Assembly: GCA_021324855.1 (NCBI GenBank)
Contig: JAJPIG010000029.1
Coordinates: 1 to 64,000 of the forward strand
Direction of reading: 5' to 3'
DNA length: 64,000 nucleotides
Origin: Pseudomonadota bacterium
GTDB taxonomy: Bacteria; Desulfobacterota; Binatia; Binatales; Binataceae
In this document: piece by piece, positions 1 through 27,873 of the stretch
Numbering within the stretch: position 1 is the stretch's first letter
Layout of the letters: the number at the start of each line of letters is the position of its first letter
Position numbers and translations under genes: made by a program
Notes under the pieces: generated by a model
Seen by the model: only the letters and a program-made list of their open reading frames with translations
Database searches by the model: none
What the model was told of the DNA's origin: nothing

Positions 1-1
1 A

Positions 2-487
2 TTGCTGCCCGAGCAGGTTTGGGATGAGGCTGATATCCCAGAGCGGTGGATGTATCTGGGCAAAGCCACTGGCTCCGCCATTCCCCTGATGTGGGCGCAT
101 GCTGAATACATTAAGCTGGTCCGCTCGTTGGCTGACGGTCGGGTCTTCGATCTGATTCCGGAGGTCGTCGACCGGTTTCAAAAGCGCCGCGAGCGCCCGC
201 GAATCGAAGTCTGGAAATCCAATCGGCGGATAAAATCGATCGAGCCCGGTCGGCGGCTGAGAATTCAGGCGCCTCATCCGTTCGTGTTGCACTGGTGCTG
301 GGGCGAATGGCGCGAGGTTCACGATACGCGCTCGACGCCGACCGCGGTCGGGATCGAATACGTTGACATCGAGGTCGCTCCCGACGAGCGGGCGCCGCTA
401 AGATTCACATTTTACTGGCCCGACGGCGCGCGCTGGGAAGGGCACGACTATTCGGTCGCCGTCGTGCCGGGCAACGGTCCGGCTTAA
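2..487 (+). CDS. Glucoamylase-like GH15 glycosidase, C-terminal part
   Basis: Only the last 161 codons are present; the gene begins upstream of the window. The visible start contains LPEQVWD, the region around the general-base glutamate of the GH15 (alpha/alpha)6 barrel, followed by a helix with MWAHAEYIKL, also typical of GH15 C-termini. After the barrel (about residue 65 onward) comes a beta-rich tail of about 95 residues (WGEWREVHDT, RFTFYWPDGARWEG) that looks like an appended immunoglobulin- or carbohydrate-type domain. GH15 enzymes release glucose from alpha-glucans or trehalose; which substrate is used cannot be told from this fragment. The stop codon overlaps that of the convergent DUF4911 gene by three bases. 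Confidence 0.82.
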   Translation: MLPEQVWDEADIPERWMYLGKATGSAIPLMWAHAEYIKLVRSLADGRVFDLIPEVVDRFQKRRERPRIEVWKSNRRIKSIEPGRRLRIQAPHPFVLHWCWGEWREVHDTRSTPTAVGIEYVDIEVAPDERAPLRFTFYWPDGARWEGHDYSVAVVPGNGPA

Positions 488-3112: not shown

Positions 3113-3120
3113 GCGTATAA

Positions 3121-3130
3121 CTATATATAG
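3121..3130. promoter_or_regulatory. AT-rich palindrome in a divergent promoter region
   Basis: The ten-base perfect palindrome CTATATATAG sits between two divergent start codons only 39 bases apart (3112 minus, 3152 plus), in otherwise GC-rich DNA. It contains TATA-type -10 candidates on both strands. On the minus strand, initiation seven or so bases after such a -10 would begin almost at the phasin-like ATG, which has no ribosome binding site. A role as shared promoter is inference. Confidence 0.4.
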
Positions 3131-3151
3131 GACCGTCCGCAGCGCCAACCA

Positions 3152-3439
3152 ATGACCACAGTTGCCGCCATCGTGAGCTACACGTCGGGCTTCGCGTTGA
3201 TGCGTTTTCGCGGCTCGCCGCTGGAAGCGATCAGCACCTCGCTCGCGATCGATGCCGCGCTCGCGCCGCTCACGGCGCTGGTCGCCGCGCGGCGCGGGCG
3301 CTCGGCCATCCTCTGGGCCGTGATTGGATTTGTCTTCGGCGCGTGGGCGCTTTTCTGGGCCTTGGTAGTGCTCTCGTTCAAGCCGGTCCGGAGCGATCCA
3401 TCCGGTCCCGGATTTCCACCCACCTCCGATGCCGCCTGA
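3152..3439 (+). CDS. Small hypothetical membrane protein
   Basis: A 95-residue protein with an amphipathic N-terminal part, a hydrophobic segment around residues 30-47 (LAIDAALAPLTALVAA), a short basic turn (RRGRS) and a strong transmembrane helix at about residues 52-75 (ILWAVIGFVFGAWALFWALVVLSF), then a proline-rich tail. I do not recognise a family. The start at 3152 is the first ATG after the divergent promoter region and has no clear Shine-Dalgarno sequence. Coding status rests on the coherent membrane pattern and on tiling neatly between two better supported genes. Confidence 0.5.
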   Translation: MTTVAAIVSYTSGFALMRFRGSPLEAISTSLAIDAALAPLTALVAARRGRSAILWAVIGFVFGAWALFWALVVLSFKPVRSDPSGPGFPPTSDAA

Positions 3440-3531
3440 CTTGGCTGATCTGGCGGAGCGCGGTTGAATCGCCGCCCTGCCGATGGCTAACGTGGTCGTT
3501 GGCGGGTGGTGATACCGCCAGGAGCCGCCGG

Positions 3532-6851: not shown

Positions 6852-7488
6852 CCGCGCGCGCGGCGGCTTCCGCAATCAGCGGCGCCAGATGCCCGGGCAA
6901 CTCGCCGATATGCGCTATGAGCTCATCGTGCGCGACACGGTCGCCGACGCCGATGAACCGGACTCCCGCGGCGGCCGCCGCCTCGCGATCGATATGGCTG
7001 TCGCCGACATAGACCGCGCGATCGGAGGCAACCCCGGCGCGCTGCAGGCATAGTTCGAGGATGTCGGGCGCGGGCTTGGGACGGACCTTGTCGCGCGCGG
7101 ATGCGACCGCATCGAAGACCTCGCTGAGTTCCAGAAACTCGATTAAGTCGGGCACGGTCGTCGAGCGGTTGGTCGCGAGACCAAGCTTGAAACGCCGCTT
7201 GAGCTCCAGCATGAACGGACGCAATGCGAAAGGCGTGCGGAGCAGGCGGAAGAAGGGCGCCGAGTCGAGACTCCGCGCAACTTCCTTCATTCTCCGGAGC
7301 TTTTCCAAATCAGCGCCGGCGCGCCGCTCGAACATTTGGATCGCGGCGTAGTAAATGCCTTCGCGCTCCTCAACCGGCGTCAGAGGCGGCTCGCCGATTT
7401 CCGCGAAGATCGCGTTGTAGTAGGCGATGTTCGCGTCGACCGAGTCGAACAGCACCCCGTCGGCGTCGAAGATGATCAGCTCAACCAT
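6832..7488 (-). CDS. HAD-superfamily phosphatase
   Basis: A 218-residue HAD hydrolase with all motifs: nucleophile and acid in [12 protein letters not shown] (D8, D10), the Thr/Ser of motif II in LATNRS, Lys of motif III near RPKPAPD, and motif [11 protein letters not shown]. The alpha-helical cap at residues 15-85 is of the C1 type seen in phosphoglycolate phosphatase and beta-phosphoglucomutase relatives. The start at 7488 begins right at motif I; the longer open frame upstream has no family similarity. It is 23 bases downstream of the VOC gene on the same strand. Substrate not predictable. Confidence 0.83.
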
Positions 7489-7511
7489 CAGGAATGCGGA
7501 ACCCGCGCCGC

Positions 7512-8051
7512 TTACGAATCGAACGCCCTCGCGGTCTCGGCCTTCCATTCGGTCATCAGCTTGAACTCCGGATTCTTGCCGAACTCCTCGACCGTCGCGC
7601 GCAGGATTTCGTCGTCGGAAAGGCTCAAATCGAGCGGCTTCACGATCGGCTGACGGACGTACCACGGCGCGTCGCAGAAAAACTCGAGGCGGTTGTTCTC
7701 GATATCGCGATAGTAGACCGAAAACCACGAGCCATGCGTGATCGGTTCGATGTCCTTGAGCTCCGCCGCCTTGAGCTGCTTGTAGCGGCTGCGTAATTCG
7801 CCGAGCGAATCCACCCTGAAAGCGATGTGATTGATTACGCGACAATCCGGCGGACCGGTGCGCCCCGCCGCCAGTGCGAGCATGTGATGGTCGACCTCGG
7901 GGTTGAGCGTCAGAAAGCAGATATCATTGCCGCGCGCTTGGCCGGAATCCGAAAGATGGAAGCCGAGCACGCTGGTGTAGAAGTCCCGCATTTTCGGAAA
8001 GTCGTAACAGTAGAGCACGACGTGACTGATGGTTGCCTTGCCGTGTTTCAT
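7512..8051 (-). CDS. VOC-superfamily (extradiol dioxygenase-like) protein
   Basis: The start MKHGK at 8051 is fixed by AGGAGG at 8061-8066. The protein of 179 residues has two beta-alpha-beta-beta-beta modules: SHVVLYCYDFPKMRDFYTSVLGF supplies the first His, NHIAFRVDSLGELRSRY the second, and NNRLEFFCD the Glu, the complete 2-His-1-carboxylate metal site of vicinal-oxygen-chelate enzymes. The overall form resembles 2,3-dihydroxybiphenyl dioxygenase-type domains, but at this size glyoxalase/bleomycin-type or epimerase activities are equally possible. It probably forms a two-gene unit with the HAD phosphatase. Confidence 0.8.
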   Translation of the reverse strand: MKHGKATISHVVLYCYDFPKMRDFYTSVLGFHLSDSGQARGNDICFLTLNPEVDHHMLALAAGRTGPPDCRVINHIAFRVDSLGELRSRYKQLKAAELKDIEPITHGSWFSVYYRDIENNRLEFFCDAPWYVRQPIVKPLDLSLSDDEILRATVEEFGKNPEFKLMTEWKAETARAFDS

Positions 8052-8220
8052 CGAGCACGCCTCCTCGGGCAATCATTAAGAATTAACATCCGCCCGACGC
8101 GCGGCACAATCGCGCTTCAGCGTATGGTAATCACGCAGTCGATAGTCCACGACCCGGCGTTGCGCGCCGATGGTCGATCCGGCACGCTATGCCGCTGAAA
8201 AGCCCTTCGAAGACGATCAC

Positions 8221-9120
8221 ATGGAACGGCGAACGCTCGGAAAGACCGGACTCAGTGTGAGCGAGCTCGGACTCGGCACCTCCGAGATCGGCTACGAGCG
8301 CGTCACGCAGCGCCAGATCAATGAACTCGTCAATGCTGCGCTTGATGCGGGCCTCAATCTGATCGATACCGCCGCCTGCTACGGCGCGGCCGAAGAGATG
8401 ATTGGACGCGCCGTGGGCCATCGCCGCGATGATTATTACATCGCGACGAAATGCGGCCACGCCTCGGGACTCCGGCTGCCGGACTGGAACCCGGAGCTGA
8501 TCGAGAAGAGCATCGAGCGAAGCCTCAAGCGTCTTCGCACCGACCACCTCGATATCGTCCAGTTCCATAGCTGTCCGATCGACGTGATGCAGCGCAATGA
8601 GGTGATAGAGGCGCTGCAGCACGCGCGCGACGCCGGCAAGACCCGTTTTATCGGCTACAGCGGCGATGGCGCCGCGGCGCAATGGGCGGTGCGCTCCGGG
8701 ATTTTCGACACGCTGCAAATCTCGGTCAGCATCGCCGACCAGGAAGCAGTCGAAGGCGCGATCGCGGAAGCTCGCGCGCACAATCTAGGCGTGATCGCGA
8801 AACGCCCGATCGCAAACGCGGTATGGCTCGCCGAACCCGATCGCGGTATCGATTGGTACTATCGTCCCTACCGCGAGCGGCTCGAGAAGCTCGGCTACGG
8901 ATTTCTGTTCGAGGATGCGAAGACCTCGGTCGCGACCGCGCTGCGCTTTACGCTGAGCGTTCCGGGCGTGCATACCGCGATCGTAGGAACCACCAAGCCG
9001 CGCCGATGGAGCCAGAATGCGGCGCTTATCGCGGCAGGCAAGCTCAAGCCGACGCAGTACAACGCCATCCGGACGCGATGGACCGCGGTTGCCGATGCCT
9101 CGTGGGTCGGCCAGCGATGA
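8221..9120 (+). CDS. Aldo/keto reductase
   Basis: The NADPH-binding TIM barrel of the AKR family, 299 residues. The catalytic tetrad is visible: Asp and Tyr in LIDTAACYG, Lys in IATKCG, His in IVQFHS; the cofactor region TIVGTTKPRR-type (AIVGTTKPRRW) follows near residue 260. The start is taken at ATG 8221, which matches the family N-terminus (MERRTLGKTGLSVSELGLG); an in-frame ATG at 8170 would add 17 residues. The ABC ATPase start follows after a single base, so the two are probably co-translated although their functions are not obviously linked. Confidence 0.86.
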   Translation: MERRTLGKTGLSVSELGLGTSEIGYERVTQRQINELVNAALDAGLNLIDTAACYGAAEEMIGRAVGHRRDDYYIATKCGHASGLRLPDWNPELIEKSIERSLKRLRTDHLDIVQFHSCPIDVMQRNEVIEALQHARDAGKTRFIGYSGDGAAAQWAVRSGIFDTLQISVSIADQEAVEGAIAEARAHNLGVIAKRPIANAVWLAEPDRGIDWYYRPYRERLEKLGYGFLFEDAKTSVATALRFTLSVPGVHTAIVGTTKPRRWSQNAALIAAGKLKPTQYNAIRTRWTAVADASWVGQR

Positions 9121-9121
9121 G

Positions 9122-9931
9122 ATGAAGCGCACGGCGCGACCGGTGATTGAGGTGTCGGGGCTGCGGATCGAGCGCGACACCGTAGTCCTCGAATCGATCG
9201 ATTGGCGCGTCGAGCGCGGACAGCATTGGGCGATCCTCGGCGCGAACGGTTCCGGCAAGACCTCGCTTCTAAGCGCGCTTATCGGCTACGTAGCGCCGAC
9301 CGCCGGTTCGATTGCCGTTTTGGGCGAGACCTACGGCCGCGCTGACTGGCGGCAATTGCGCACGCATATTGGGATCGTCAGCGCGAGCGTCGACCAGTTG
9401 ATGGCCGGTTACGAGACGGCCTTGGACATCGTGATCGGCGGCAAGTTCGCGCAGATCGGCTACTGGGGCGACAGCGCGCCCGCCGATCGCGCGCGGGCCG
9501 CGGGCATTCTCAGGAAAATAGAGGGCGAATATCTGCGCGATCGCGCGTGGCGATTTTTGTCGCAGGGCGAACGACAACGGGTGTTGATCGGACGGGCGCT
9601 GATGGCCGCGCCGAAGCTGCTCATCCTCGATGAACCGTGCGCCGGCCTCGATCCGGTCGCGCGCGAGCATTTCGTGCAGTTCCTCGAGCGGCTGGCGCGC
9701 CGTCGCGGCGGTCCCACTCTGGTGCTCGTCACACATCACGTGGAGGAGATTATGCCGGCCTTCTCGCACGTTCTGATTCTCAAATCCGGCACGGTGCTCG
9801 CCGCCGGCGAAAAGCATCGCGTGCTGACCTCCGCGATGCTCGGCCGGGCGTTCAATGCGCCGGTGAGCCTGGCGCGTCGCAATGGTCGCTACGCCGTGCG
9901 CGTGCGCCCGCGAATCGACCTGGTAATCTAA
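9122..9931 (+). CDS. ABC transporter ATP-binding protein (ModF/YlmA-like)
   Basis: A single nucleotide-binding domain of 269 residues: Walker A GANGSGKTS near residue 43, Q-loop region, signature LSQGERQR, Walker B LLILDEPCAGLD, and H-loop VTHHVEE. The signature with Gln in place of Gly and the overall layout match YlmA/ModF-type ATPases. No permease or binding protein is next to it, so it is an orphan; soluble or remotely encoded partners are possible. The ATG at 9122 directly follows the aldo/keto reductase stop. Confidence 0.85.
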   Translation: MKRTARPVIEVSGLRIERDTVVLESIDWRVERGQHWAILGANGSGKTSLLSALIGYVAPTAGSIAVLGETYGRADWRQLRTHIGIVSASVDQLMAGYETALDIVIGGKFAQIGYWGDSAPADRARAAGILRKIEGEYLRDRAWRFLSQGERQRVLIGRALMAAPKLLILDEPCAGLDPVAREHFVQFLERLARRRGGPTLVLVTHHVEEIMPAFSHVLILKSGTVLAAGEKHRVLTSAMLGRAFNAPVSLARRNGRYAVRVRPRIDLVI

Positions 9932-10003
9932 TGCTTCGCAGCGCAGGGTTGCGTCTGTGCGCAGCGTCGAATAGTTGATCGGAACACCTTACCAGCGGGA
10001 CCG

Positions 10004-10576
10004 ATGATGAGGCGGAAAACTTTCACCCTTACGAACTTGATGGCGTTGGCAATCATGCTCGCGATTGGAGCAGGAATCGCTTTCGGCGCCGATTCGGATG
10101 GATTACCGATGCGTAACACTGGACACTACGCCGTGCTCGATACCGACAAGGGCACGATTGTGATTGAACTCTACCCGGCGGTGGCGCCCAAGACCGTCGC
10201 CAATTTCGAGAAGCTTTCGCGCGACGGTTTTTACAACGGCCTGACCTTCCATCGCGTCGAGCCCGGCTTCGTGGTGCAGGGCGGCGACCCGGCTGGCAAC
10301 GGCACCGGCGGTCCCGGCTACACTGTGCCTGCCGAAATCAGCCAGACCGAGAAGCATCTGCGCGGCACGGTCGCGATGGCGCGCACGAGCGACCAGGTCA
10401 ATCCTGAGCGCGCGTCAAGCGGCAGCCAGTTCTATATCTGTCTGGCTCCGGCGCCGTTTCTCGACCAGCAGTACACGATTTTCGGCGGCGTGGTGAAAGG
10501 CATGGATGTGGTCGATCAGATCAAGGTCGGCGACCATATCAAGCACGTCACGCTCACGAGCGAGCCGCCTAAGTAA
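10004..10576 (+). CDS. Exported cyclophilin-type peptidyl-prolyl isomerase
   Basis: A signal peptide (residues 1-28, hydrophobic [17 protein letters not shown], cleavage before ADS) precedes a compact cyclophilin domain. Conserved parts include [19 protein letters not shown] with the catalytic Arg region, GFVVQGGDP, and [12 protein letters not shown]. These proteins isomerise X-Pro bonds during protein folding, here in the periplasm. The total of 190 residues fits the short bacterial class. It stands alone between the ABC ATPase and ptsP. Confidence 0.9.
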
Positions 10577-10695
10577 TCGAGCGGTGGCGATTGTGAGCGC
10601 GGACAAAGACAGCGATCCGACGCTGGGTAACACCGAGCAGTTACGCGCCACAGTTGCGCCGACCTATCTGACACAGAACTTCTGACGGCGCGCGG

Positions 10696-10724
10696 TTGTG
10701 ACCGTGGCGCGGGGCGGCTAAAAT
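10696..10724 (+). promoter_or_regulatory. Candidate promoter of ptsP
   Basis: TTGTGA at 10696-10701 and TAAAAT at 10719-10724 are separated by 17 bases, a good sigma-70 arrangement (4/6 and 5/6 matches). Initiation would fall near 10731, only about eight bases before the ptsP ATG at 10739. The -10 lies inside an inverted repeat, GGCTAA (10716-10721) with TTAGCC (10724-10729), extended by GCGGGG (10709-10714) with CCCCGC (10732-10737). It could be an operator or a start-proximal hairpin. Confidence 0.45.
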
Positions 10725-10738
10725 TAGCCAACCCCGCC

Positions 10739-13111
10739 ATGGCACAAACCCGGGACCGATTCGCGCTGATAGAGAACCTCTCCTCGATCGGCGGCGAACC
10801 GTCCCGCGACCTCCGTGAGACGCTGGATTTGATCGTCGCGACGGTCGCGGCCGGCCTCGAAACCGAGGTCTGTTCGCTTTACCTCTTCGATCCCAAGCGC
10901 GAACGGCTCGTGTTGCGCGCCACCGTCGGGCTCGAGGGAGACTCCGTCGGCAAGGTTTCGATGCGCGTCGATGAGGGCCTGGTCGGGATGGTGATCGAAA
11001 CCGGCGAGCCGCAAGCGGTCGAGGACGCGATCAGTCATCCGCGCTACAAGTATTTCCCGGAAACCGGCGAGGAACGCTATCACACCTTTCTTGGCGTCCC
11101 AGTGCAGAACGGGCGCGAACGTCCGATTGGCGTGCTGGTGGTACAGACGCGTCGGCGCCGCAAGTTTACCGCCGGCGAAATTCGCCTGCTCAAGGCCGCG
11201 GCTAATCAGGTCGCGCAGGTGCTCTCCCATTATCGGTTGCGCGAGACGCTCGCCACCAAGGAAAAGGAGCGCGACGAGTATCGCCGCCGGATGATCGAAG
11301 CAACCCGCCAGCTCAAGGACTATGAAAAAGTCGGCGGCAAAACCCGCGTCGCTGCGCCGGTCCGGATGCGCCGTCCACGCCTGGTCGGATTGCCCGCTTC
11401 GCCCGGCTTTGCTCACGGCGTGGCGCATGTCGTCGGCACGTTTCTAAGCACGATCGATCGGACGCGGCGCGCGCGCGACCCCAAGAGCGAGCTGAAGCGC
11501 TTCGATGAAGCGCTGGCGCGTTCGCTGGCCGAGCTGGCGGCGCTCAAGGCGCGGATGGCCCCCTTGATGCCCGAGGACGATCTCCGCATCTTCGACGGCC
11601 ATCGGCTGATCCTCGCCGACGAGGAGTTCATTGGCCGGGTGCGCCAGCAGATCGAACAAGGCTATGCGGCCGAAAGCGCGCTGTTCCGCGTGATCGACGA
11701 GTTGTCCGCCTCGATGCTGAACGTGGCGGATGCTTATCTCCGTGAACGGGCTAACGATTTCCGCGATGTCGGCCATCGCGTGCTGCGCCATCTGAGGCAG
11801 GAGGGCGGCAAAGCGTTGTCGCGGCGCACAATTCTGGTTGCTGACGAACTTACGCTTTCACAGCTAACGCTGGTATCGCACGAAAACATGGTTGGGATTG
11901 CACTGCAATCCGGCGGCGTCACCTCGCACGCCGCGATCCTGGCACGCGCCTTTGAAATCCCGACCGTGGTGGGGGTCGAGCACCTGATGGAATCGGTGAG
12001 CGAGGGTGACGACCTGGTGCTCGACGGTAACTCGGGCGTGCTGTACATCAACCCGTCGGTCGAAGTCGAGCGCGAGTACGACAGCCTGCATCGGCGATAC
12101 GAGACCTTCAAACGCGAGCTGATGGCCGCGCATGGCGAGAGTACCAGCACGCGCGACGGTTATCCCGTCCAGATCCTCGCGAACGTCGCCTTGCTCGCCG
12201 ATCTCAATCTTGCGCTGCGCTATGGCGCCGAAGGCGTTGGGCTCCTGCGGTCGGAATTCTCATTTCTGACCTACGAGGATTTTCCGGACGAGGATCAGCA
12301 GCTCAAACTTTACAGTCAGATGCTGAGCGCCGCCGGCGGACGCCCGGTCACGATTCGCACGCTCGATATCGGCGCGGACAAATATCCGCCGTATCTGCGC
12401 GTCCCGCGCGAGGAAAATCCGTTCCTCGGATGGCGCTCGATCCGAATCTCGCTCGAGATGTCAGGGCTGTTCAAGGTCCAACTGCGGGCGATCTTGCGCG
12501 CTGCAGCGCACCATCATGTGAAAATCCTGTTCCCGATGATCTCGAGTCTCGAAGAGCTGCGGCGCGCGCGCGAACTTCTCGGCGAGGCGCAGTCCGAGCT
12601 CTACAAGGAAGGCCTCGAGCATAATCCGCAGGTCGAGGTCGGGATCATGGTCGAAGTGCCGTCGGCAGTATGGCTCGCGCCGCGGCTCGCGCGCGAAGTC
12701 GATTTTTTTTCGATCGGCACCAACGACCTGATTCAGTATCTGCTGGCTGCCGACCGCAACAATCCCAAGGTGGCCCATCTTTACGAGTCGCTGCATCCGG
12801 CCGTCCTCTCTGCGATCGCCGATGTGATCAACGTCGGGCGCGCTGCCGGCAAAGAAGTCTGCCTCTGCGGCGAAATGGCGAGCGATCCGCTCTGCACGCT
12901 GCTTCTAGTCGGGATGGGGTTGACGCAGTTGAGCCTGAGCCCGCTATTCATACCGGTGGTCCGCAAGCTGGTTCGCGATAGCGATTATCAGACCGCCCGG
13001 CTTATCGCCCATGATACGCTCGAAATGGCATCGAGCCAGGAAATCAAAGGCTATCTCATCGAGCGCTATCGCGACCTGGGCCTAATCCAGATGGTCGAAA
13101 TGTACCGGTAG
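10739..13111 (+). CDS. ptsP: Phosphoenolpyruvate-protein phosphotransferase PtsP (enzyme I-Ntr)
   Basis: A 790-residue enzyme I with an N-terminal GAF sensor domain (about 1-170; EVCSLYLFDP, DEGLVGMVIETGEP), the feature that separates PtsP of the nitrogen PTS from sugar-PTS PtsI. Next come the HPr-binding helical part (210-350), the swivelling phosphohistidine domain (GGVTSHAAI, His397) and the PEP-binding TIM barrel (460-770; GLLRSEF, IRTLDIGADK, FFSIGTNDLIQY, CLCGEMASDP with the catalytic Cys). It passes phosphate from PEP to NPr and EIIA-Ntr, which regulate nitrogen, potassium and envelope functions; those partners are not in this window. No Shine-Dalgarno sequence precedes the ATG, and a hairpin-like repeat ends one base before it. 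Confidence 0.93.
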   Translation: MAQTRDRFALIENLSSIGGEPSRDLRETLDLIVATVAAGLETEVCSLYLFDPKRERLVLRATVGLEGDSVGKVSMRVDEGLVGMVIETGEPQAVEDAISHPRYKYFPETGEERYHTFLGVPVQNGRERPIGVLVVQTRRRRKFTAGEIRLLKAAANQVAQVLSHYRLRETLATKEKERDEYRRRMIEATRQLKDYEKVGGKTRVAAPVRMRRPRLVGLPASPGFAHGVAHVVGTFLSTIDRTRRARDPKSELKRFDEALARSLAELAALKARMAPLMPEDDLRIFDGHRLILADEEFIGRVRQQIEQGYAAESALFRVIDELSASMLNVADAYLRERANDFRDVGHRVLRHLRQEGGKALSRRTILVADELTLSQLTLVSHENMVGIALQSGGVTSHAAILARAFEIPTVVGVEHLMESVSEGDDLVLDGNSGVLYINPSVEVEREYDSLHRRYETFKRELMAAHGESTSTRDGYPVQILANVALLADLNLALRYGAEGVGLLRSEFSFLTYEDFPDEDQQLKLYSQMLSAAGGRPVTIRTLDIGADKYPPYLRVPREENPFLGWRSIRISLEMSGLFKVQLRAILRAAAHHHVKILFPMISSLEELRRARELLGEAQSELYKEGLEHNPQVEVGIMVEVPSAVWLAPRLAREVDFFSIGTNDLIQYLLAADRNNPKVAHLYESLHPAVLSAIADVINVGRAAGKEVCLCGEMASDPLCTLLLVGMGLTQLSLSPLFIPVVRKLVRDSDYQTARLIAHDTLEMASSQEIKGYLIERYRDLGLIQMVEMYR

Positions 13112-19014: not shown

Positions 19015-19299
19015 ATGCGATTTCGTAACCTGCTCATCGGTTCCGCGATGGTTTCCGCGATGACCCTCGGCGCAGCCTGTTCATCGTCGAGTACCACCGC
19101 CGTGGCGCCGCCGCCACCACCGCCTCCGCCGCCCGCGCCCGTTACCACCAGCTCGACCAGCAGCAGCACCAGCACGAGCACGATTACGAGGACAGAGCCG
19201 GATGGAACTGTCGTCAAAGAGACTACGGTAACGACTATGAACAACGGCCGCATCCAGCAGAAGCAGGTGACCACGACCTACGAGTATCCGGCGCGTTGA
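19015..19299 (+). CDS. Small exported protein with Pro and Ser/Thr tracts
   Basis: A 94-residue protein. Residues 1-22 form a signal peptide ending in LGAAC, a weak lipobox (Cys22), so it may be a lipoprotein. Nine consecutive prolines (residues 32-40, bases 19108-19134) are followed by a Thr/Ser tract (44-58) and a short beta-like tail with DGTVVKETTVTTMNNGRIQQ. The tracts make an extended linker that would hold the tail away from the membrane. No family recognised. Preceded by AAAGGGGAG. Confidence 0.62.
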   Translation: MRFRNLLIGSAMVSAMTLGAACSSSSTTAVAPPPPPPPPPAPVTTSSTSSSTSTSTITRTEPDGTVVKETTVTTMNNGRIQQKQVTTTYEYPAR

Positions 19300-19911: not shown

Positions 19912-20352
19912 TCAGAGCACTTGCCGGCATATGAATGCGGCTGCGGCATTCTGCGGCTCGCGCTTGTGATAGAGGACGAATTGCGCGGTGCCGATGTAAA
20001 GCCGGCCGAGGCAGGTGACCACTGGCATGTCGACCACGCCGCTCAGCGGTTCGGCGAAATCGGGGCGCGCGCGTCCGAGCGCGTCGAGCACTTCGATATA
20101 GCCGGAAGCGAAAATGACAAAGCCGGTCGGCGCATCGAAGCGCCAGCGACCGTTCGAGACCACGTGCTTGCCGCCGGCGCGCATCGTCACGGTTTGCGTG
20201 AAGGCGCCATCGGGCCGGAGCGTAAGCGTCTCCGAAGCAACCGGGTAATCGGCGACGTAGGTGCCGTAAACCGCGGCGACATCCGTCGCCTTGCAACCGG
20301 CGCTCCCGGCGGCGAGCAAAACGCATGCGAAAAGGAGGGCGTATCGGCTCAT
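19912..20352 (-). CDS. Hypothetical lipoprotein downstream of addA
   Basis: A 146-residue protein with a clear lipoprotein signal (SRYALLFACVLLAAGSAGC, Cys at residue 20) and a small beta-rich body (YGTYVADYPVASETLTLRPDGAFTQTV, NGRWRF). The beta pattern resembles NlpE/META-type lipocalin-like folds, but I cannot assign a family. The ATG at 20352 overlaps the addA stop by four bases, so translation is coupled to the helicase-nuclease gene, an odd pairing for an envelope protein. Confidence 0.68.
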   Translation of the reverse strand: MSRYALLFACVLLAAGSAGCKATDVAAVYGTYVADYPVASETLTLRPDGAFTQTVTMRAGGKHVVSNGRWRFDAPTGFVIFASGYIEVLDALGRARPDFAEPLSGVVDMPVVTCLGRLYIGTAQFVLYHKREPQNAAAAFICRQVL

Positions 20353-23300
20353 GATCGGCCGCTCCAGCATCGCGAGACGTAACCGCATCCGAGGCGTCGG
20401 CATTCGGAAGATGAAGCAGGTTTTTTCGGCCACGCGTCGAGGATGTCATCGCGAGCGCGTGCATCGAGGATCGCGCGCCCGAGCGCGAGAATATGGTTTT
20501 GAATAACGGCAGCATCTGAGGCCGGCAGCTCGCGACGTTCGGTGCGATCCCGGATGTAAATAATCTCTGCACCGATTTCGCATCCGGGATATCGCTGCGA
20601 AGCCGCCAGCGCGTAGCACCGCAACTGCGTCTCGTAGTCGCCATCGTGCGCATGCGCATACTTGTAGTCGCGGACCAAAAGACGCGCATCGCGCTCGACC
20701 AGCGCATCGATCTGTCCCCGCACGAACACCGTCATTCCATCTTCCACGAGTCGCATCAGAAACGGAATTTCCCGTCCGATGATCTTGCCATCCTCGCCGG
20801 TATGCTCGTTGACATAGCGGACGAGGTCGCGGACCAAGGCCTCGCGCCAAACGCGATTGAGCGGGGCCTCGGCGGCGACCGCATCGATCATTTCACGGAT
20901 CGCCGGTTCGACCCGGCCGCCTGCGGCGGCCGGGTCGAACCGCTCCAGTACGGCATGCGCGATGGCGCCCATAGTGGTGGCGGGGCCGCCAGGCGTGACG
21001 CTTAGCGCCGCGCCCGGCGGCCCCTCCGGCAGACCCAGCTCGTACCGCAGGTAGAACTGCCGCGGACAGCGCGCGAAGTCGTTGAGCTGGCTCACGCTCG
21101 CCGCGACCTCGCGCACCGCCGGCGCACGGAAGCGCAGGCGGCGCGCGGCGGTCGCGAACAACTCGCGCGCGGCGTCAGGATCGGGCGACGGGGCGCGATG
21201 GAAGTGCGGACGGTTTACGAGGTCTTCAGCGCGATGGACAAGGAGCGGGATGCGACATTGCGGGGTATTGAGTTCAACGCGCATCGGCGACGCTGCGTGA
21301 GCGGAAAACTTGCGCAGCGCGTCAACACCGATCGCCTCGCGCACAATCGCAGCCCAGTATTTGTCCGTGCTGCCCTCGCTTAGGATCAGGCGGTCGCGCG
21401 CGCGAGTGATCGCGACGTAAAGAATTCGCGCAGACTCAGCCTTTTCCTGGTCGGCGACGCTTTCGCGATATTCATCCAAAAGGAAATTTGGAAGCGATTC
21501 CTCGGAGATGCCGGCGGTAGCGCGCAGGAGCAGTCCCGCGTGTGGTGACATGAGGAAATCGTAAGGGGCGTTTGGGGGCTGCCGGCCGATATCGCCGACG
21601 AAAACGATCGGAAATTCAAGCCCCTTGGCCTGGTGGATCGTCATCAGGCGCACGACATTTTCATGCTCGCCGATGATCTGCGCCTGCGGTTCCAGCGGTT
21701 CCTCCGCGACCAGACGGCGCAGATGGTCGACGAACTGGACCAGGCCAAAAAACGAATGGCTCTGGAACGCACGCGCCATTTCGACCAACTTGCGCACGTT
21801 CGCCGCGCGTTGGCGTCCGTCGTCGAGGCCGAGTTGGACGGCTTCAAAACGGGTCACCTCGAGCGCGCGCTCGATGATGGCGGTCAGCGACATTCGCTCG
21901 CGCATCGCGCGCAGATCTGCCAATGCCGCATGCGCGGCGAGGACGGCTTCGCGTTCCTCGGCGAGCCACTCGAAGCGTTCGTGCGAATCGTTGAACAGCG
22001 CGCAGATCGATCGCGGCGCACGATCGGGTTCGCGCCCGGTTTCTAGATGAAGCGCGATCGCGAACAGGCATTGATCGGAGATGCCGAAAAGGGGCGAGCG
22101 CAGCGCGGCGGTAAGCGCAATTGAATCCTCGGGGTTGACGATCGTCGCCAGCAGCGAGGCGAGGTCGAGCACCTCGGGCGAGCCGTAAAATCCGCGTCCC
22201 TTGATGGTGTAGGAGGGGACGCCGGCGGCGCGCAGCGCGCGTTCATAGATCGCGACCTGTTCGAATGAGCGCAGCAGGATTGCGATGTCACCGAAACAAG
22301 CCCCCCGCGGCGCGTTGTTCCCTGGATCGGTCACGCACTCGCGACCCTCGACAATCGCAACTATCCGCGAGGCGATCGCGGCCGCCTCGCGCTCGCGGCG
22401 TTCGCGGGCGCCCTTCACCGACGGAGTCAGAATCAGTTCGACGGCGGGCTCATCGCGTTGAGCATCGCGATGATGCACCAGCCGATGATCGTCGGACCAT
22501 ACGATTCTGTAATCCTGGCGAGGGCCATCCTGCGGACGCATCGCGCGTGCGGCGATCTGGTTGACGAATTCGAGGATCGGTCGGAGCGAGCGGCGATTCT
22601 GCCGCAGAGGCCGCACCGCCGCCGCAGGTTTGCGAGGGTTGTTGAAGACCCGAACGTCGGCGCCCCGGAAACGATAGATCGATTGCTTCTCGTCGCCGAC
22701 GATGAACAACTCCGGCCGCGGCGGATCGCCTTCGGCCAGCAGGCGCACGATCTGGTCCTGGATTGGATCAGTATCCTGGTATTCGTCAACCAGCAGCGCG
22801 GATAATTCCCGACGGTAGGCCGCAGCGATTTCACCGCGCTCCTCCAGCAAGTTGCGGCATCGCACAAGCAGGTCATCGAAGGTCGCGACATTGTTTTCGC
22901 GGCGACGGTTGTCAAGATCGCGCGCTAGATCCGCGATCAGCGAGGCGGTTTCGCGCGTGAGCGGCGCAGCGCATGCGGCCCCATACGCCTCGCGGATCGC
23001 CTCCGCAGCGGCTCTGATTGCTCCTACCACCGACTTGAGGTCCTGCTTGCGCGCATCCGGCATCGCCTTTATCAGCAAGTCGAGTACGCCGAATTCGTCG
23101 AACGGAGAGTCGGGGCGAAGTCGCCTAATTGCGCAGCGCAGCTCGGGCCACGCAATACTGAGGTCGTGCAGTTTCTCGCCTGCGACTCCGCCGATCCCGC
23201 GCATCTTCACGAGATCGTCAACCAAATCGATAAGGTGCGCGATGTCTTTTGCGATTTGCGCGCCGCGAGCGCCAAGCAAGGCGGCGCTGGCATCGCCCTT

Positions 23301-23906
23301 TTCGATCAGCCATTCGGGCGGATGGCCGAGGCGATCGAGCTCCCTGACCAGGCGAACCGCGGTCGGCACTGCGCCTTCGGTACGGCCGGCGCCCTCGAGA
23401 CCGCGCACGCGGACCAGACGTTGCGCCGCAGGATCGCCGCGCCGGACACGATCGACGATAAACGCGCGGCATCGGTCCTCGACGAACGTTGCCGTCTCGA
23501 GATCGTCGAGAATCTCAAAACCAGGAGCGAGACCGGCTTCGAGCGGATGTTCGCGCAGGATGCGGCCGCAAAACGCGTGAATGGTCGAGAGACGGGCGAG
23601 GCCGAGCTTGCGGCGCGCCGTGATCAGCCGGGTACGCAACGGTCCCTCGGTTTCGCACCCGACCCGCATATCGAGGACCTCGGCGATGCGCCGGCGCATG
23701 TCGGCGGTCGCCTTCTCGGTGTAGGTGATCGCGGCGATGGCTTCGGGAGCGACGGGCGCGCGGCCCTGGATGTCGCCGGCCAGCAATGCGACGAAGCGCT
23801 GCGCCAGCACCTCAGTTTTTCCCGAGCCGGCCGAGGCGCGAACGATTACATGGCCGGGCGCGAAGACGGCGGCGCGCTGCTCGTCGGTGAGTTCGCTCAC
23901 GGCCAT
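20349..23906 (-). CDS. addA: AddA-like helicase-nuclease
   Basis: An 1185-residue UvrD/RecB-like superfamily 1A helicase with C-terminal nuclease. Walker A ASAGSGKTEVLAQRF is at about residues 24-38; DEYQDTDPIQ (motif II), VGDEKQSIYRFRGAD (III), MTIHQAKGLEFPIVFVGD (V) and ILYVAITRARDRL (VI) are intact. The RecB-type PD-(D/E)XK nuclease near the end has the catalytic VRDYKYA and QLRCYALA. Cysteines in FARCPRQFYL and near the C-terminus (CRRLGCGYVSRC) could bind a 4Fe-4S cluster, more often reported for AddB. With AddB it should process double-strand breaks for recombination. It starts three bases after addB. Confidence 0.9.
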   Translation of the reverse strand: MAVSELTDEQRAAVFAPGHVIVRASAGSGKTEVLAQRFVALLAGDIQGRAPVAPEAIAAITYTEKATADMRRRIAEVLDMRVGCETEGPLRTRLITARRKLGLARLSTIHAFCGRILREHPLEAGLAPGFEILDDLETATFVEDRCRAFIVDRVRRGDPAAQRLVRVRGLEGAGRTEGAVPTAVRLVRELDRLGHPPEWLIEKGDASAALLGARGAQIAKDIAHLIDLVDDLVKMRGIGGVAGEKLHDLSIAWPELRCAIRRLRPDSPFDEFGVLDLLIKAMPDARKQDLKSVVGAIRAAAEAIREAYGAACAAPLTRETASLIADLARDLDNRRRENNVATFDDLLVRCRNLLEERGEIAAAYRRELSALLVDEYQDTDPIQDQIVRLLAEGDPPRPELFIVGDEKQSIYRFRGADVRVFNNPRKPAAAVRPLRQNRRSLRPILEFVNQIAARAMRPQDGPRQDYRIVWSDDHRLVHHRDAQRDEPAVELILTPSVKGARERREREAAAIASRIVAIVEGRECVTDPGNNAPRGACFGDIAILLRSFEQVAIYERALRAAGVPSYTIKGRGFYGSPEVLDLASLLATIVNPEDSIALTAALRSPLFGISDQCLFAIALHLETGREPDRAPRSICALFNDSHERFEWLAEEREAVLAAHAALADLRAMRERMSLTAIIERALEVTRFEAVQLGLDDGRQRAANVRKLVEMARAFQSHSFFGLVQFVDHLRRLVAEEPLEPQAQIIGEHENVVRLMTIHQAKGLEFPIVFVGDIGRQPPNAPYDFLMSPHAGLLLRATAGISEESLPNFLLDEYRESVADQEKAESARILYVAITRARDRLILSEGSTDKYWAAIVREAIGVDALRKFSAHAASPMRVELNTPQCRIPLLVHRAEDLVNRPHFHRAPSPDPDAARELFATAARRLRFRAPAVREVAASVSQLNDFARCPRQFYLRYELGLPEGPPGAALSVTPGGPATTMGAIAHAVLERFDPAAAGGRVEPAIREMIDAVAAEAPLNRVWREALVRDLVRYVNEHTGEDGKIIGREIPFLMRLVEDGMTVFVRGQIDALVERDARLLVRDYKYAHAHDGDYETQLRCYALAASQRYPGCEIGAEIIYIRDRTERRELPASDAAVIQNHILALGRAILDARARDDILDAWPKKPASSSECRRLGCGYVSRCWSGRS

Positions 23907-23909
23907 CGC

Positions 23910-26900
23910 TCAGAGGTTCCTGCGCTGGAAATTACGGCAGACCGGTCGATACGGACAGTGATCAGAACAGTGGCGAGGATCGACGTCGAACCGGCCGGCG
24001 CTCGCCTCACGCACGATCGCAACGATCCGATCAGCGACCGGATCGTCGATGCGCTCGCGGGCGTCGTTAGCCGGATCGACGAGGTCGGACGGAATCTCTT
24101 TAATGAGCTCCGGTTGGCGGCCGCGCAGAAGCAGGTAGCCGCCTTCGAGCTTCACGTCAGGGGCGAGCTCGGATCGAAACTCCTCGAGCGCCCCCATCAG
24201 GTAAACGGGAATCTGGAAAGCAATCCTGCCGAACTCGCGCTTTTCGGGATCGATGAGCGGCCTGTAGGTATCGGGCTTGCGCGCGCGTTTGTAGTCGATG
24301 ACGCGAATTCGCTCGATTCGGCCGGCGCGCCGGTGAAGTTCGAGGCGATCGATGCGGCCATGAATCGGCAGGTCCGGCCCGCCCGCGCGATCGCGCAGCA
24401 CGAACCTGAACTCGTGCTCGGAGCGAAGCTCGGCGTCGGGCGATCGCGCGAGCATTGCGAGGTGGTAATCGGCGGCGCGTTCCGCTACGCGCCGGATGGT
24501 CTCCCACTCGAGATCGAAGAAATCGCGGTCGCGCGCCTGCGCACGCTTTTCGCCGTGAATTTCCTTGAGCAACGGACCGACGAGCGCGCGGGCGCGGTCG
24601 ATGGGCTTTGCCTCGATCGCGCCAATCACGCGGTACAACACTTCATGCATCAGGCTGCCGGATTCGAGCGCGCTCAGCTCGTAATCCGGTTCGTCTTCAT
24701 CGCGCAGCCGCAGGACGCGTCGGGCGAAAAATTTGAAGCCGCACGCGCCCAGCTCGTCCAGCTGCGTCGGACTCCATCCGCTGGGATCGTCGACCAAAAT
24801 GCGGCGGAGCGCTTCCGACGGCGCGATACGTCCATCGAAGCGGCCTGCGGTCGCGAACTTCGTCGGATCCGGATGGTATAGCCCCTCGGAATCCTCGCGC
24901 GTAGGAAGGGCGAGCCACGCCTCGCGTTGTCGTTCGATGGCGGAGCGTCGCGCGATCGAATCGAGCGTGGCGCGGTCCATAATGCACTCGGCGCCCGGTA
25001 ATTCAAGCCGGCGATCGAAGGCGGCCCGCTCGAGAAATTCCTCGCGTGCGAAGCAGTTATTGGTTTGTATAAAGCTTCCGGCGGAAACATCGATGATTCG
25101 ATGCTCGTCGCCGCCGAGCACGCGCAGGACTTCATCAACAAACGGCGAGCGGACCAAAGGATTGGTTTCGGCGGCGGCGTAAGTAAGCACCACGCGCCGC
25201 GCCGGCATCGACAGAGCAAGAAAAAAAAGGAACGAGTCTTCGGCGTTACGCTGGGCGCGTCCGCGCAGGATGCTTCCCAGTGACGACGGCGCGAAGGCGC
25301 GGAACCGGCGGCGCAGGATGTCCCGCAGGACCGAATTCAGATCACGCCGGATGGTTTCGCTGATGATCGGATCCTCGCCGTGATAAACCGGGAAAGTGCC
25401 TTCGTCGAGGCCGATTACGAACACTAGGTCGAAGTCGAGACCGCGCGCATCCTGCACGGGCATCGCACGCACACCGTCCGAATCGCGCGCATCATCAACG
25501 CCGGGCGCGGCGCCGAGCGACGTTTCCAGCAGGCGCTCGAAATCCGCAGGCTGAATCCCGCCGGCCAGGAGTCCGCGATCGGCGAGTGTGGCAAACTGGT
25601 CGAGGATCGTCCGAATGCCACCCCAGGCGCGCGCCGCGTCGGTGGGGCTCCCGCCGCGCGCGGGATCAAACTGCAGTGCGGCAAGGATTCTTTCGAAGCG
25701 ATCAAGATGCTCGGCGAGCGTGCCGGGGCTATCGAGCGACGCGAGCGTGTCAGCCAAAAATTCGAGCGTGTACGCGCCGCCCTCGAACCATCGTTGGCGC
25801 CGTTCGAGGCGCTCGCGGTCGGCCGCCGAAGCGCGCGTCAGCGCCTCGGCCATCTCATCGCGATGTCTCTGTAGTGCATCGCGCAACGGCGTTGCGCCTT
25901 CATCGATGTAGCCAATTCCGGCCATCACCCGCACGGCCGCGTCCGCATTATGAATACCGAGATGCGGCGAGCGTAGAATGGCGATTAGATCATCGCGGCG
26001 ATAGCCGTCGCGCGGCGCGCGCAAGAGGTTGAGCAGCAAGCGCGCGGTCGGCGTGGTCATGAGCGGCGCGTTGTGATGCACGGCGAGTGGGATGCGATAA
26101 CGCCGGAAGACGGTGCGCAGATGGTCGGCGTAGGGCGCGAGGTCGCGCGCCACGATTGCGATGCGCGCCGGAGGAATGCCTTCGCGCGCTTCAAGTTGAC
26201 GTCGAATCTCGCGCGCGACGTGTTCGACCTCGCCCAGGCGCGAGGGCGCGCGCACGATCTCCAGCGTCGAGTCGGGCGGCGGCGCATCCTGCGGCGGTTC
26301 CGTAAACAGATGCTCGAGCACGAAGCCCAAAGCGCCGGGCCGACCGCCGCGCCGGATGAACTCGGGCAGCACCTGGTCGGCGATGGATTCCTCGGCGACG
26401 AAACGGTTCCAGGTTAGATCGGCGAACCGTGTCGCATCGACGTTACGCGGACTGGCCTGGATCGTAATCGATGCGTCGCCGACCACGCGAATGAGCGCGG
26501 TGACGATCATGAACTGGAGGATGCTGAAATCGTAAATTTCCGCGATCGTCACGCGTGTGATGCCTTCGAGCGCCGCGGGGCGGCGGCTGCGCCGCTCGGC
26601 ATCGTGCAACATTTCCAGTACGGTCGATTCGCGATCGTGGGCATCAGCAAGCCGATGACGCGCGAGAATCGCCTCGTACTCAGCGAAGATCGCAACTACG
26701 GCTGCGAGGCGACCCGCGCTCTTGAGCTTTCGGATCGCTTCGGTGAAATCCTCAGGCTTGAGCGCGGCGCTCTTGAACTGGCGGATGAGGCCGTGGACGT
26801 GATCGATGACGCCCGGTACGAGGGGCAGCTCGGAATTGTGCGCGGCGCGGAGCGCCGCTTCGACGATCAGGCGTTCGCCGGCGGTGTCGATCGCGGCGCG

Positions 26901-27047
26901 GTCGTCATGACACTCACGCCATAAACGCCGGACGAGCTGCGGAAATGTGAACAGACGGTAATCCCACGCGCAGCCCTGCGCGCTTTCGCGCCGAAGCACA
27001 TCTTCGACCTTGTGAGAGGTCGGGTAGATCGAAAGGACGCGGTCCAT
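23910..27047 (-). CDS. addB: AddB-like nuclease subunit
   Basis: A 1045-residue partner of AddA. The N-terminal helicase-like part lacks a working P-loop (YPTSHKVEDVL where Walker A would be), as in known AddB proteins. The C-terminal PD-(D/E)XK nuclease shows GSLMHEVLYR, GRIDRLELH, VIDYKRAR and a following Gln/Tyr helix. Four Cys typical of the AddB 4Fe-4S staple are present: one in LGACGFKFFARR and three in CSDHCPYRPVC at the C-terminus. It lies between an SbcD-like gene (88 bases upstream) and addA (3 bases downstream), a compact break-processing unit. Confidence 0.87.
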   Translation of the reverse strand: MDRVLSIYPTSHKVEDVLRRESAQGCAWDYRLFTFPQLVRRLWRECHDDRAAIDTAGERLIVEAALRAAHNSELPLVPGVIDHVHGLIRQFKSAALKPEDFTEAIRKLKSAGRLAAVVAIFAEYEAILARHRLADAHDRESTVLEMLHDAERRSRRPAALEGITRVTIAEIYDFSILQFMIVTALIRVVGDASITIQASPRNVDATRFADLTWNRFVAEESIADQVLPEFIRRGGRPGALGFVLEHLFTEPPQDAPPPDSTLEIVRAPSRLGEVEHVAREIRRQLEAREGIPPARIAIVARDLAPYADHLRTVFRRYRIPLAVHHNAPLMTTPTARLLLNLLRAPRDGYRRDDLIAILRSPHLGIHNADAAVRVMAGIGYIDEGATPLRDALQRHRDEMAEALTRASAADRERLERRQRWFEGGAYTLEFLADTLASLDSPGTLAEHLDRFERILAALQFDPARGGSPTDAARAWGGIRTILDQFATLADRGLLAGGIQPADFERLLETSLGAAPGVDDARDSDGVRAMPVQDARGLDFDLVFVIGLDEGTFPVYHGEDPIISETIRRDLNSVLRDILRRRFRAFAPSSLGSILRGRAQRNAEDSFLFFLALSMPARRVVLTYAAAETNPLVRSPFVDEVLRVLGGDEHRIIDVSAGSFIQTNNCFAREEFLERAAFDRRLELPGAECIMDRATLDSIARRSAIERQREAWLALPTREDSEGLYHPDPTKFATAGRFDGRIAPSEALRRILVDDPSGWSPTQLDELGACGFKFFARRVLRLRDEDEPDYELSALESGSLMHEVLYRVIGAIEAKPIDRARALVGPLLKEIHGEKRAQARDRDFFDLEWETIRRVAERAADYHLAMLARSPDAELRSEHEFRFVLRDRAGGPDLPIHGRIDRLELHRRAGRIERIRVIDYKRARKPDTYRPLIDPEKREFGRIAFQIPVYLMGALEEFRSELAPDVKLEGGYLLLRGRQPELIKEIPSDLVDPANDARERIDDPVADRIVAIVREASAGRFDVDPRHCSDHCPYRPVCRNFQRRNL

Positions 27048-27135
27048 GCCCCTCGCGGATCGATCTTAGTCCCGCACACAGATTTTTGCCGCGTGCCGAC
27101 GCAACGCAAATTCACATACCCTGGAGAGGGCCTGT

Positions 27136-27873
27136 TTACGTCCTGATGACGATCTGCTCGAGGAACGGAGCTTCGCCGCGAACGAACGAGACCCACGCGA
27201 CCGAACCCGCCCCATCGTTCGAATAAAGCGGCGCTGGCGTGCCGCAATAGGCGGCGCGCGTCCCGGCCTGGGAGACATCGTTGAAGACGTGCACATGGCC
27301 GAGCGCGATATAATGATAGGCGCTGGCGGCGATCTCGCCGGCCGTGATGCGCGATGAACGTTCACTCTCGTCGTCAGTGAAGAGCCCGTGTGCGAGTGCG
27401 ATATTCCAGCGGTCGGGCGCCGGCGCGGGTATGCCGGCGAGCGGACGATAATCCGGCGAATGTTCAACCAGCGCACGCCCCCAGAGCCGCGCCGCCAGCG
27501 CGGGGAAGTCGAGCGTGCGTCCTTCGGGTTCAAGTATAAGATGAAGATTTTGCGGGAAGCGCGCCGGCTCGAGCCCTGCATAGATCGATCGCTCGTCGTG
27601 CGCGTCATGATTCCCGGGGACCATTACTACAGGCATCTCCGCCCGCGCGATGGTCTCGAATGCGAAGGCGAGAGCCTCGTCGGCGATGCGGCTCGAATCG
27701 AACAAATCCCCGACGATCAGCAGCAGATCGGCCTCGCGCTCGTTGGCGATCGCGATCACGCGGCTGAACGCGTCACGGAGGCGGCGCCGGATCAAGGCGC
27801 CTTTCGGGCCGCTTCCGACGCTGTCGCTTTCGAGGTGCACATCGGAGGTATGGAGCAACTTGAGCGGGCGCAT
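27136..27873 (-). CDS. SbcD/Mre11-like metallophosphoesterase
   Basis: A 245-residue calcineurin-type phosphoesterase with all five motifs: HTSDVHL, VGDLFDSS, PGNHDAHDE, ALAHGLF and ALGHVHV, which together bind two metal ions. The order and spacing are those of SbcD/Mre11 DNA nucleases, but it stops after the catalytic domain and lacks the long C-terminal part that docks SbcC. No sbcC is in the window. Being first in the addBA operon, it likely works on DNA ends with AddAB. Start MRPLKLLHTSDVHL is standard. Confidence 0.82.
   Translation of the reverse strand: MRPLKLLHTSDVHLESDSVGSGPKGALIRRRLRDAFSRVIAIANEREADLLLIVGDLFDSSRIADEALAFAFETIARAEMPVVMVPGNHDAHDERSIYAGLEPARFPQNLHLILEPEGRTLDFPALAARLWGRALVEHSPDYRPLAGIPAPAPDRWNIALAHGLFTDDESERSSRITAGEIAASAYHYIALGHVHVFNDVSQAGTRAAYCGTPAPLYSNDGAGSVAWVSFVRGEAPFLEQIVIRT

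What the first reader, a model, noticed from the sequence alone, without database searches (positions are those of the whole stretch)
19912..27873. SbcD-like nuclease, AddB, AddA and a lipoprotein in one minus-strand unit
A short Mre11/SbcD-type phosphoesterase without SbcC heads the addBA genes, both helicase-nuclease subunits appear to have intact PD-(D/E)XK nucleases, and both carry Cys sets suited to an iron-sulfur cluster. The last gene, overlapping addA by four bases, is an envelope lipoprotein, which is hard to explain functionally. A three-protein end-resection machine is a testable idea.
Basis: partly seen in the sequence, partly recalled or inferred. Interest (0 to 1): 0.52.

Follow-up and report, generated by a model that had tools for sequence, protein, structure and literature searches.

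The report
Helicase-nuclease with two iron-sulfur sites
The genes are a DNA-break-processing helicase-nuclease whose two halves both carry an iron-sulfur-type clamp, next to a small Mre11-like nuclease and an unrelated lipoprotein that are probably just neighbours; the double clamp is a little-noticed variant, the neighbourhood is probably not a new machine.

Summary
In detail: on the minus strand lie sbcD-like (27873-27136), addB (27047-23910), addA (23906-20349) and a small exported protein (20352-19912). The SbcD-like protein is a bare Mre11/SbcD catalytic core. Both Add subunits have intact PD-(D/E)XK motifs and four conserved cysteines. The proposed three-protein machine is not supported. 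In this family (Candidatus Binataceae, 35 draft genomes searched) the small SbcD is present in 30, AddB of this type in 13, next to each other in 10; 18 genomes keep SbcD without this AddB. Presence of addBA follows the SbcD tree (3 changes; none of 1000 shuffles as low), so the pair looks inherited in one syntenic block with groEL and aroF. The lipoprotein has no match in the other 56 genomes searched. The genome also holds a second AddAB pair and a YhaO/YhaN-like pair; no canonical SbcC was seen. The real point of interest is AddA: its nuclease domain is of the AddB/AdnA/Cas4 iron-staple type. Staple-bearing AddA also occurs in other families of the phylum and is not a recent copy of the AddB domain. 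Two-staple AddAB is a variant of a known enzyme, possibly the older form.

The parts
27136..27873 (-). small SbcD/Mre11-type phosphodiesterase, catalytic core only (245 aa)
   Evidence: Pfam Metallophos; TIGR00619 sbcd 59.3 bits, below its cut-off 77.65; metal ligands invariant 10 of 10; AlphaFold model pLDDT 90.4 matches Mre11/SbcD, Z 20.6-24.7, to E. coli SbcD residues up to 275 only
27048..27135 (.). 88-nt gap between sbcD-like and addB, no terminator-like site in it
23910..27047 (-). AddB-type subunit (1045 aa): helicase-like region without Walker A, C-terminal PD-(D/E)XK nuclease
24288..24350 (-). AddB nuclease motif D900 to D918-Y-K920
   Evidence: invariant 14 of 14
24741..24743 (-). 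AddB first staple cysteine C769
   Evidence: same column as the AddA cysteine
23937..23969 (-). AddB staple cysteine triad C1027, C1031, C1037
   Evidence: invariant 14 of 14
20349..23906 (-). AddA-type subunit (1185 aa): UvrD/SF1A motor plus C-terminal PD-(D/E)XK nuclease
21066..21068 (-). AddA first staple cysteine C947
   Evidence: invariant 13 of 13
20661..20708 (-). AddA nuclease motif D1067 to D1080-Y-K1082
   Evidence: invariant 13 of 13
20367..20402 (-). AddA staple cysteine triad C1169, C1174, C1180
   Evidence: invariant 13 of 13; all four absent from the genome's second AddA
19912..20352 (-). small exported (lipoprotein-like) orphan, 146 aa; judged not part of the system
   Evidence: no Pfam or NCBIfam match; found in 1 of 57 genomes, its own

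Best explanation
addA and addB encode an AddAB-type helicase-nuclease. AddA is the only ATP-driven motor and unwinds DNA from a broken end along the 3' strand; its nuclease cuts the 3' strand. AddB is a motor-less scaffold whose nuclease cuts the 5' strand, leaving a 3' tail for RecA. Each nuclease domain is clamped by its own four-cysteine iron-sulfur staple, whereas the well-studied B. subtilis AddAB has one, in AddB. It is a second AddAB in this organism, beside a single-staple pair on another contig. The small SbcD is a separate Mre11-type phosphodiesterase core that probably trims hairpin or blocked ends without a Rad50-type partner; it is a conserved neighbour of groEL/aroF and not a subunit. 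The lipoprotein is a local newcomer translated off the end of the transcript. Shown by sequence or model: domain content, motifs, conservation, phylogeny, synteny. Inferred: strand assignment, metal content, activities, co-transcription.
For: Domains and motifs. AddA nuclease model (pLDDT 88.9) superposes on AdnA Z 17.4 (228 residues, 3.4 A, model 18..273), Cas4-family ACE1 Z 17.3, B. subtilis AddB Z 15.8 (22..275), and on RecB only Z 10.7 without the C-terminal tail (1..231) (one best chain per entry is shown there). All four cysteines fall in the same alignment columns in 19 of 23 AddA and 23 of 23 AddB nuclease domains of a set that I chose. Second AddAB: AddB2 in 31 of 35 family genomes, in 12 of the 13 that have the window type. 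SbcD independence: 18 genomes with SbcD and without this AddB. Vertical inheritance. Lipoprotein orphan. The roles of AddA and AddB are taken from B. subtilis AddAB (PMC4824097, passages read).
Against: NCBIfam equivalog cut-offs for AddA and AddB (Gram-positive and alpha models) are not reached. In Foldseek's own ranking of the AddA nuclease model, after AdnA and ACE1, the B. subtilis chains listed are AddA (4ceh_A 1.1e-7), and no AddB chain is among the 50 rows shown; the preference for AddB over AddA rests on the second-look alignment. Cysteine sets in this fold can hold zinc instead of iron-sulfur (a DUF3799 protein, PMC3466216 passages). The addBA-SbcD adjacency is kept in 10 of 13 genomes, which leaves room for a functional link. 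No biochemistry on these proteins was met in my searches.
Confidence: 0.75

Rival explanations
1. The three proteins form one resection machine: SbcD opens blocked ends and hands them to AddAB as a stable partner.
For: Adjacent, same strand, in 10 of 13 genomes with this AddB; AddB and SbcD trees look largely congruent by eye; B. subtilis has addB-addA-sbcD-sbcC in one putative operon (PMC1533848, passages).
Against: 18 genomes keep SbcD without this AddB; 3 of 13 have it without or away from SbcD; a response-regulator gene on the opposite strand sits between the two in 4 genomes; groEL and aroF are kept as neighbours in many loci too, so linkage may be plain synteny; no SbcD hit beside AddAB in 13 loci from other families (some are short pieces).
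Confidence: 0.1
2. The window AddAB serves mainly to destroy foreign linear DNA, recombination being served by the genome's second AddAB.
For: It is the patchy one of two AddAB pairs: 13 of 35 genomes against 31 of 35.
Against: It sits between housekeeping genes and not in a defence island, and looks vertically inherited. In PADLOC, AddA and AddB match helicase models such as GajB in the rows shown (25 of 49 for AddA); the small SbcD has one weak match to an 'Effector' endonuclease model, 1.6e-7.
Confidence: 0.15
3. The extra cysteines of AddA bind zinc or are structural only; there is one true iron-sulfur cluster, in AddB.
For: A zinc-bound relative with the same fold is known (3L0A, PMC3466216 passages; 3l0a is Z 13.2).
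Against: Best fold matches are AdnA, Cas4-family and AddB proteins; four cysteines invariant 13 of 13.
Confidence: 0.15
4. The small SbcD is not a DNA enzyme but a nucleotide or other phosphodiesterase.
For: No cap domain, no SbcC beside it; a Thermus phosphoesterase (1uf3) reaches Z 20.0, tied with the lowest Mre11 rows, and Rv0805 and GpdQ follow at 17-18.
Against: The 39 highest-ranked entries are Mre11/SbcD, Z 20.6-24.7.
Confidence: 0.2

Closest known systems
AddAB of Bacillus subtilis
   Same: One SF1A motor in AddA, two nuclease domains, iron-staple nuclease in AddB (PMC4824097, PMC7430649 passages)
   Different: Here AddA also has the staple; AddB has no Walker A; protein similarity low (AddB 28.5 bits to 3u44_B)
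AdnAB of mycobacteria
   Same: AdnA's nuclease domain is the top fold match of the AddA nuclease domain
   Different: By recall both AdnA and AdnB are motors; here AddB has none. The AdnB chain's alignment ends before a cysteine triad
Second AddAB of the same genome (AddAB2, contig C36)
   Same: Same gene order and domains; AddB2 has the staple
   Different: AddA2 lacks all four staple cysteines; AddA pair only 29% identical over 899 residues
SbcD/Mre11 and YhaO
   Same: Catalytic core and metal ligands
   Different: No cap domain, no C-terminal helices, no SbcC/Rad50 gene next to it

Membership tests
AddAB-type helicase-nuclease | UvrD-type SF1A motor with Walker A in AddA | tested here: met
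   UvrD-helicase 5.7e-55; GxGKT in 13 of 13
AddAB-type helicase-nuclease | C-terminal PD-(D/E)XK nuclease in both subunits | tested here: met
AddAB-type helicase-nuclease | iron-staple cysteines in AddB | tested here: met
   invariant 14 of 14; iron itself not tested
AddAB-type helicase-nuclease | ATP-dependent resection, Chi response | not testable with these tools
   needs purified enzyme
NCBIfam equivalogs addA_Gpos / addB_Gpos and addA_alphas / addB_alphas | score over the curated cut-off | tested here: not met
   347.6 of 707.65 and 84.4 of 903.7; 270.2 of 860.75 and 43 of 486.5: not members of these clade-specific groups
Single-staple AddAB as in B. subtilis | staple in AddB only | tested here: not met
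   four cysteines also in AddA, same alignment columns
AdnAB | two motor subunits (recalled) | tested here: not met
   no GxGK[TS] in AddB, 14 of 14
SbcCD / Mre11-Rad50 | phosphodiesterase core with metal ligands | tested here: met
SbcCD / Mre11-Rad50 | cap domain and C-terminal partner-binding helices | tested here: not met
   protein ends where E. coli SbcD is at residue 275 (alignment)
SbcCD / Mre11-Rad50 | SbcC/Rad50 gene beside it | tested here: not met
   neighbours are aroF and addB
SbcCD / Mre11-Rad50 | SbcC anywhere in the genome | tested here: inconclusive
   no TIGR00618 match over cut-off, best match is SMC; the cut-off is reached in 1 of 14 control genomes only; genome 96% complete

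The most novel reading that the evidence does not exclude
AddAB enzymes originally carried an iron-sulfur staple in both nuclease domains, and the textbook single-staple enzymes are derived by one loss in AddA. In two-staple lineages the cutting of both DNA strands at a break would be redox- or iron-dependent.
Probability: 0.35. Interest if true: 0.55.

Novelty: new variant of a known kind. Interest (0 to 1): 0.4.

Why it matters
Iron-staple nuclease domains are described as seemingly rare, and as first found in the AddB subunit of AddAB (PMC7430649, passages). A motor subunit with its own staple, spread over several families of a phylum, would mean that the standard picture of AddAB describes one branch only, and gives a simple test of whether iron-sulfur clusters control strand cutting at DNA breaks. 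It also warns against reading gene neighbourhood as machinery: here the neighbourhood looks like a vertically inherited block.

Tried and rejected
Three-protein machine: rejected as main reading because SbcD and this addBA are often apart. Lipoprotein as a member: rejected; in 6 of the 12 other Binataceae genomes with this AddB another exported-looking, acidic, low-complexity protein follows addA, and one also sits beside groEL in G020, which has no addBA of this type. Recent copying of the AddB staple domain into AddA: rejected, AddA1 plus AddB1 as one clade p-AU 0.0004. A weaker test (AddA1 together with all AddB against the other AddA) was not rejected, p-AU 0.465; it asks only about position near the root. 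Horizontal spread of addBA within the family: not supported. Plasmid collection searched with the AddA nuclease domain: no match at 1e-6. No promoter or terminator signal above chance. B. subtilis AddA is not among the rows, which shows one best chain per entry; no conclusion is drawn from that. Literature searches on Fe-S in AddA (25 of 198 papers listed; 12 of 15; 10 of 23), SbcD with addBA (13 of 13) and SbcD without SbcC (12 of 17) showed, in the titles and abstract starts listed, no report of a two-staple AddAB. Yeeles 2009, Sinha 2009 and a paper tried under a recalled DOI (10.1073/pnas.1913546116, meant to be the AdnAB structure) are not held, so I cannot say that it is not in print.
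Full report
What is there. The window lies on contig C16 of a 3.75-Mb draft genome, 96% complete. The four genes exist as described: SbcD-like 27873-27136, AddB 27047-23910, AddA 23906-20349 and a small exported protein 20352-19912, all minus strand, with gaps of 88 and 3 nt and a 4-nt overlap. A scan of named genomes with the AddB alignment found 14 loci, all metagenome-assembled, titled Deltaproteobacteria, Proteobacteria, bacterium or (2 of 14) Candidatus Binataceae. The contigs of those two match in length G033:C12 (20,695 bases, JADMIL010000048.1) and G018:C264 (19,740 bases, JAMXLL010000264.1). I therefore call family f1 Candidatus Binataceae.

The SbcD-like protein. It has the Metallophos domain and scores 59.3 bits against TIGR00619, below the cut-off of 77.65. 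All eight metal ligands are invariant in 10 of 10 sequences; in 16 sequences H195 is Asn in L061 and L062, the two most distant short relatives. The AlphaFold model (pLDDT 90.4) has Mre11 and SbcD entries as its 39 highest-ranked matches (Z 20.6-24.7), followed by a Thermus phosphoesterase at 20.0, and ends where E. coli SbcD is at residue 275. So it is a catalytic core without cap domain or partner-binding helices. The sbcC model gave three weak matches in the genome, none over its cut-off; the best is SMC, and the cut-off is reached in only 1 of 14 control genomes, so absence of SbcC is not firmly shown. The genome does have a 412-aa SbcD-like and a 1161-aa AAA_27 protein side by side on C25, next to an OLD-type ATPase and an N6-methylase, which I read as a YhaO/YhaN-like pair; that name is recalled.

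The Add subunits. AddA has UvrD N- and C-terminal domains and a PDDEXK_1 nuclease; AddB has a UvrD_C-like and a weak ADDB_N-like region (below cut-off) and PDDEXK_1. AddB lacks a GxGK[TS] motif in 14 of 14; AddA has GxGKT in 13 of 13. Nuclease motifs and four cysteines are invariant in 14 of 14 AddB and 13 of 13 AddA. The NCBIfam equivalog cut-offs are not reached, so the proteins belong to none of those named AddAB clades.

The staple in AddA. The AddA nuclease domain was modelled from 12 sequences (pLDDT 88.9, pTM 0.83). Foldseek ranks AdnA and Cas4-family ACE1 first, then B. subtilis AddA (1.1e-7), with no AddB among the 50 rows shown. The second-look alignment gives AdnA Z 17.4, ACE1 17.3 and B. 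subtilis AddB 15.8 over nearly the whole length, cysteine tail included, and RecB over residues 1-231 only (Z 10.7); it shows one best chain per entry. A profile search against solved structures gave AdnB first (4.9e-6) with an alignment that stops before any cysteine triad, and Cas4 4r5q (0.0033) over a stretch holding the first cysteine. In an alignment of 46 nuclease domains the four cysteines sit in the same columns in 23 of 23 AddB and 19 of 23 AddA rows; the four AddA rows without them are the genome's own AddA2 and those of G048, G035 and G164. These counts are not a survey: 9 of the 13 fetched outside loci were put in (G246, G198, G429 and G114 were left out), and most of the loci were picked as good matches to the staple-bearing AddA profile. 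With the cysteine columns removed, AddA and AddB domains are two sides of one branch, the staple label changes once, and a clade of AddA1 with AddB1 is rejected (p-AU 0.0004). One early loss in AddA is the simplest history, since all AddB rows have the staple; the support around the staple-less group is moderate (76-90), long branches are present, and the root is assumed.

How wide. The AddA1 nuclease profile matched 104 of 395 genomes of the phylum at E <= 0.001; by eye these include AddB proteins and staple-less AddA. Of the 30 best loci, 23 show a cysteine triad near the end of the frame; four of the 23 are Binataceae and some look like AddB. I then fetched 13 loci, mostly around such hits. 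Both subunits show first cysteine and triad by pattern in 6 (G328, G086, G117, G071, G108, G246). G198 has both triads, its AddB first cysteine not matched by my pattern. In G164, G048 and G035 only AddB has the set. In G332, G429 and G114 no AddB was found in the piece, and the first cysteine of G429 was not matched. No SbcD hit lies in any of the 13 pieces. So the double staple is not special to this family.

The neighbourhood. Among 35 Binataceae genomes (G000 to G034; G005 is only 53% complete) the small SbcD is found in 30 and the window-type AddB in 13. In 10 they lie within 2 kb on one strand: G000, G013, G031, G025 and G007 directly, G033, G030, G006, G021 and G012 with 0.8-1.8 kb between. 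G004 and G018 have them on different contigs; G008 has AddBA beside groEL and no small SbcD; 18 have SbcD only. Of the 22 other genomes of the class, the window-type AddB was strong in one, G046, without small SbcD. In 4 genomes a response-regulator gene on the other strand separates sbcD and addB, and one lies upstream of addB in G018. On the SbcD tree, presence of addBA among 30 genomes needs 3 changes; 1000 shuffles needed at least 5, mean 9.6. The AddB tree groups the genomes in much the same way by eye; I made no formal congruence test. groEL, aroF and two enzyme genes are kept around the site in many of the loci as well, so adjacency may be no more than inherited order.

Redundancy. A second AddB/AddA pair lies on C36. 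Its AddB2 is strong in 31 of 35 family genomes, missing in G008, G014, G016 and G027, and accompanies the window type in 12 of 13. The window pair is therefore the optional one.

The lipoprotein. No family match, none in 17 loci fetched from relatives, and 1 of 57 genomes, its own. In G013, G031, G012 and G008 addA abuts groEL. It is a local orphan.

Literature. Passages read: PMC4824097 (B. subtilis AddAB: one motor, two nucleases, AddB cutting the 5' strand), PMC1533848 (addB-addA-sbcD-sbcC putative operon in B. subtilis), PMC7430649 (iron-staple domains seem rare, first found in AddB), PMC3466216 (staple family, zinc variant), PMC5704561 and PMC1193525; PMC8262859 (Binatota) was searched for six repair terms and holds none. 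Others were seen as search listings only.

Verdict. Observation confirmed. AddAB with a staple in both nuclease domains: a new variant of a known kind, perhaps the older form. The three-protein machine and the lipoprotein link are not supported.

Noticed in passing
G000 contig C36, L044:10442-13798 (AddB2) and 7008-10553 (AddA2), minus strand: A second, single-staple AddAB pair in the same genome; its AddB is strong in 31 of 35 family genomes.
   Followed up: yes
G000 contig C25, L043:4660-13058: SbcD-like (412 aa) and SbcC-like AAA_27 (1161 aa) pair beside an OLD-type ATPase with TOPRIM and an HsdM-type methylase: looks like a defence island.
   Followed up: partly
L085, L087, L088, L093 (between sbcD and addB), L091 (upstream of addB): A response-regulator receiver-domain gene on the opposite strand recurs at this site in Binataceae.
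   Followed up: partly
L086, L093, L087, L085, L091, L099, downstream of addA; also L055:5742-6212 beside groEL: A small exported-looking, acidic, Asp/Asn/Ser/Gln-rich low-complexity protein follows addA in 6 genomes and also stands beside groEL in one without this addBA.
   Followed up: partly
window 19015-19299, +: Another short lipoprotein-like ORF rich in Ser/Thr/Pro with no Pfam match.
   Followed up: no
G000 contig C21, L045:286-5241: Cas4-like, Cas1-like and Cas3-like ORFs on one strand at a contig end, judged by eye: a CRISPR-Cas locus.
   Followed up: no
L155 (G117), AddB 1240-4359 and AddA 7412-11017: addB and addA are separated by about 3 kb in this two-staple genome; the insert was not read.
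   Followed up: no
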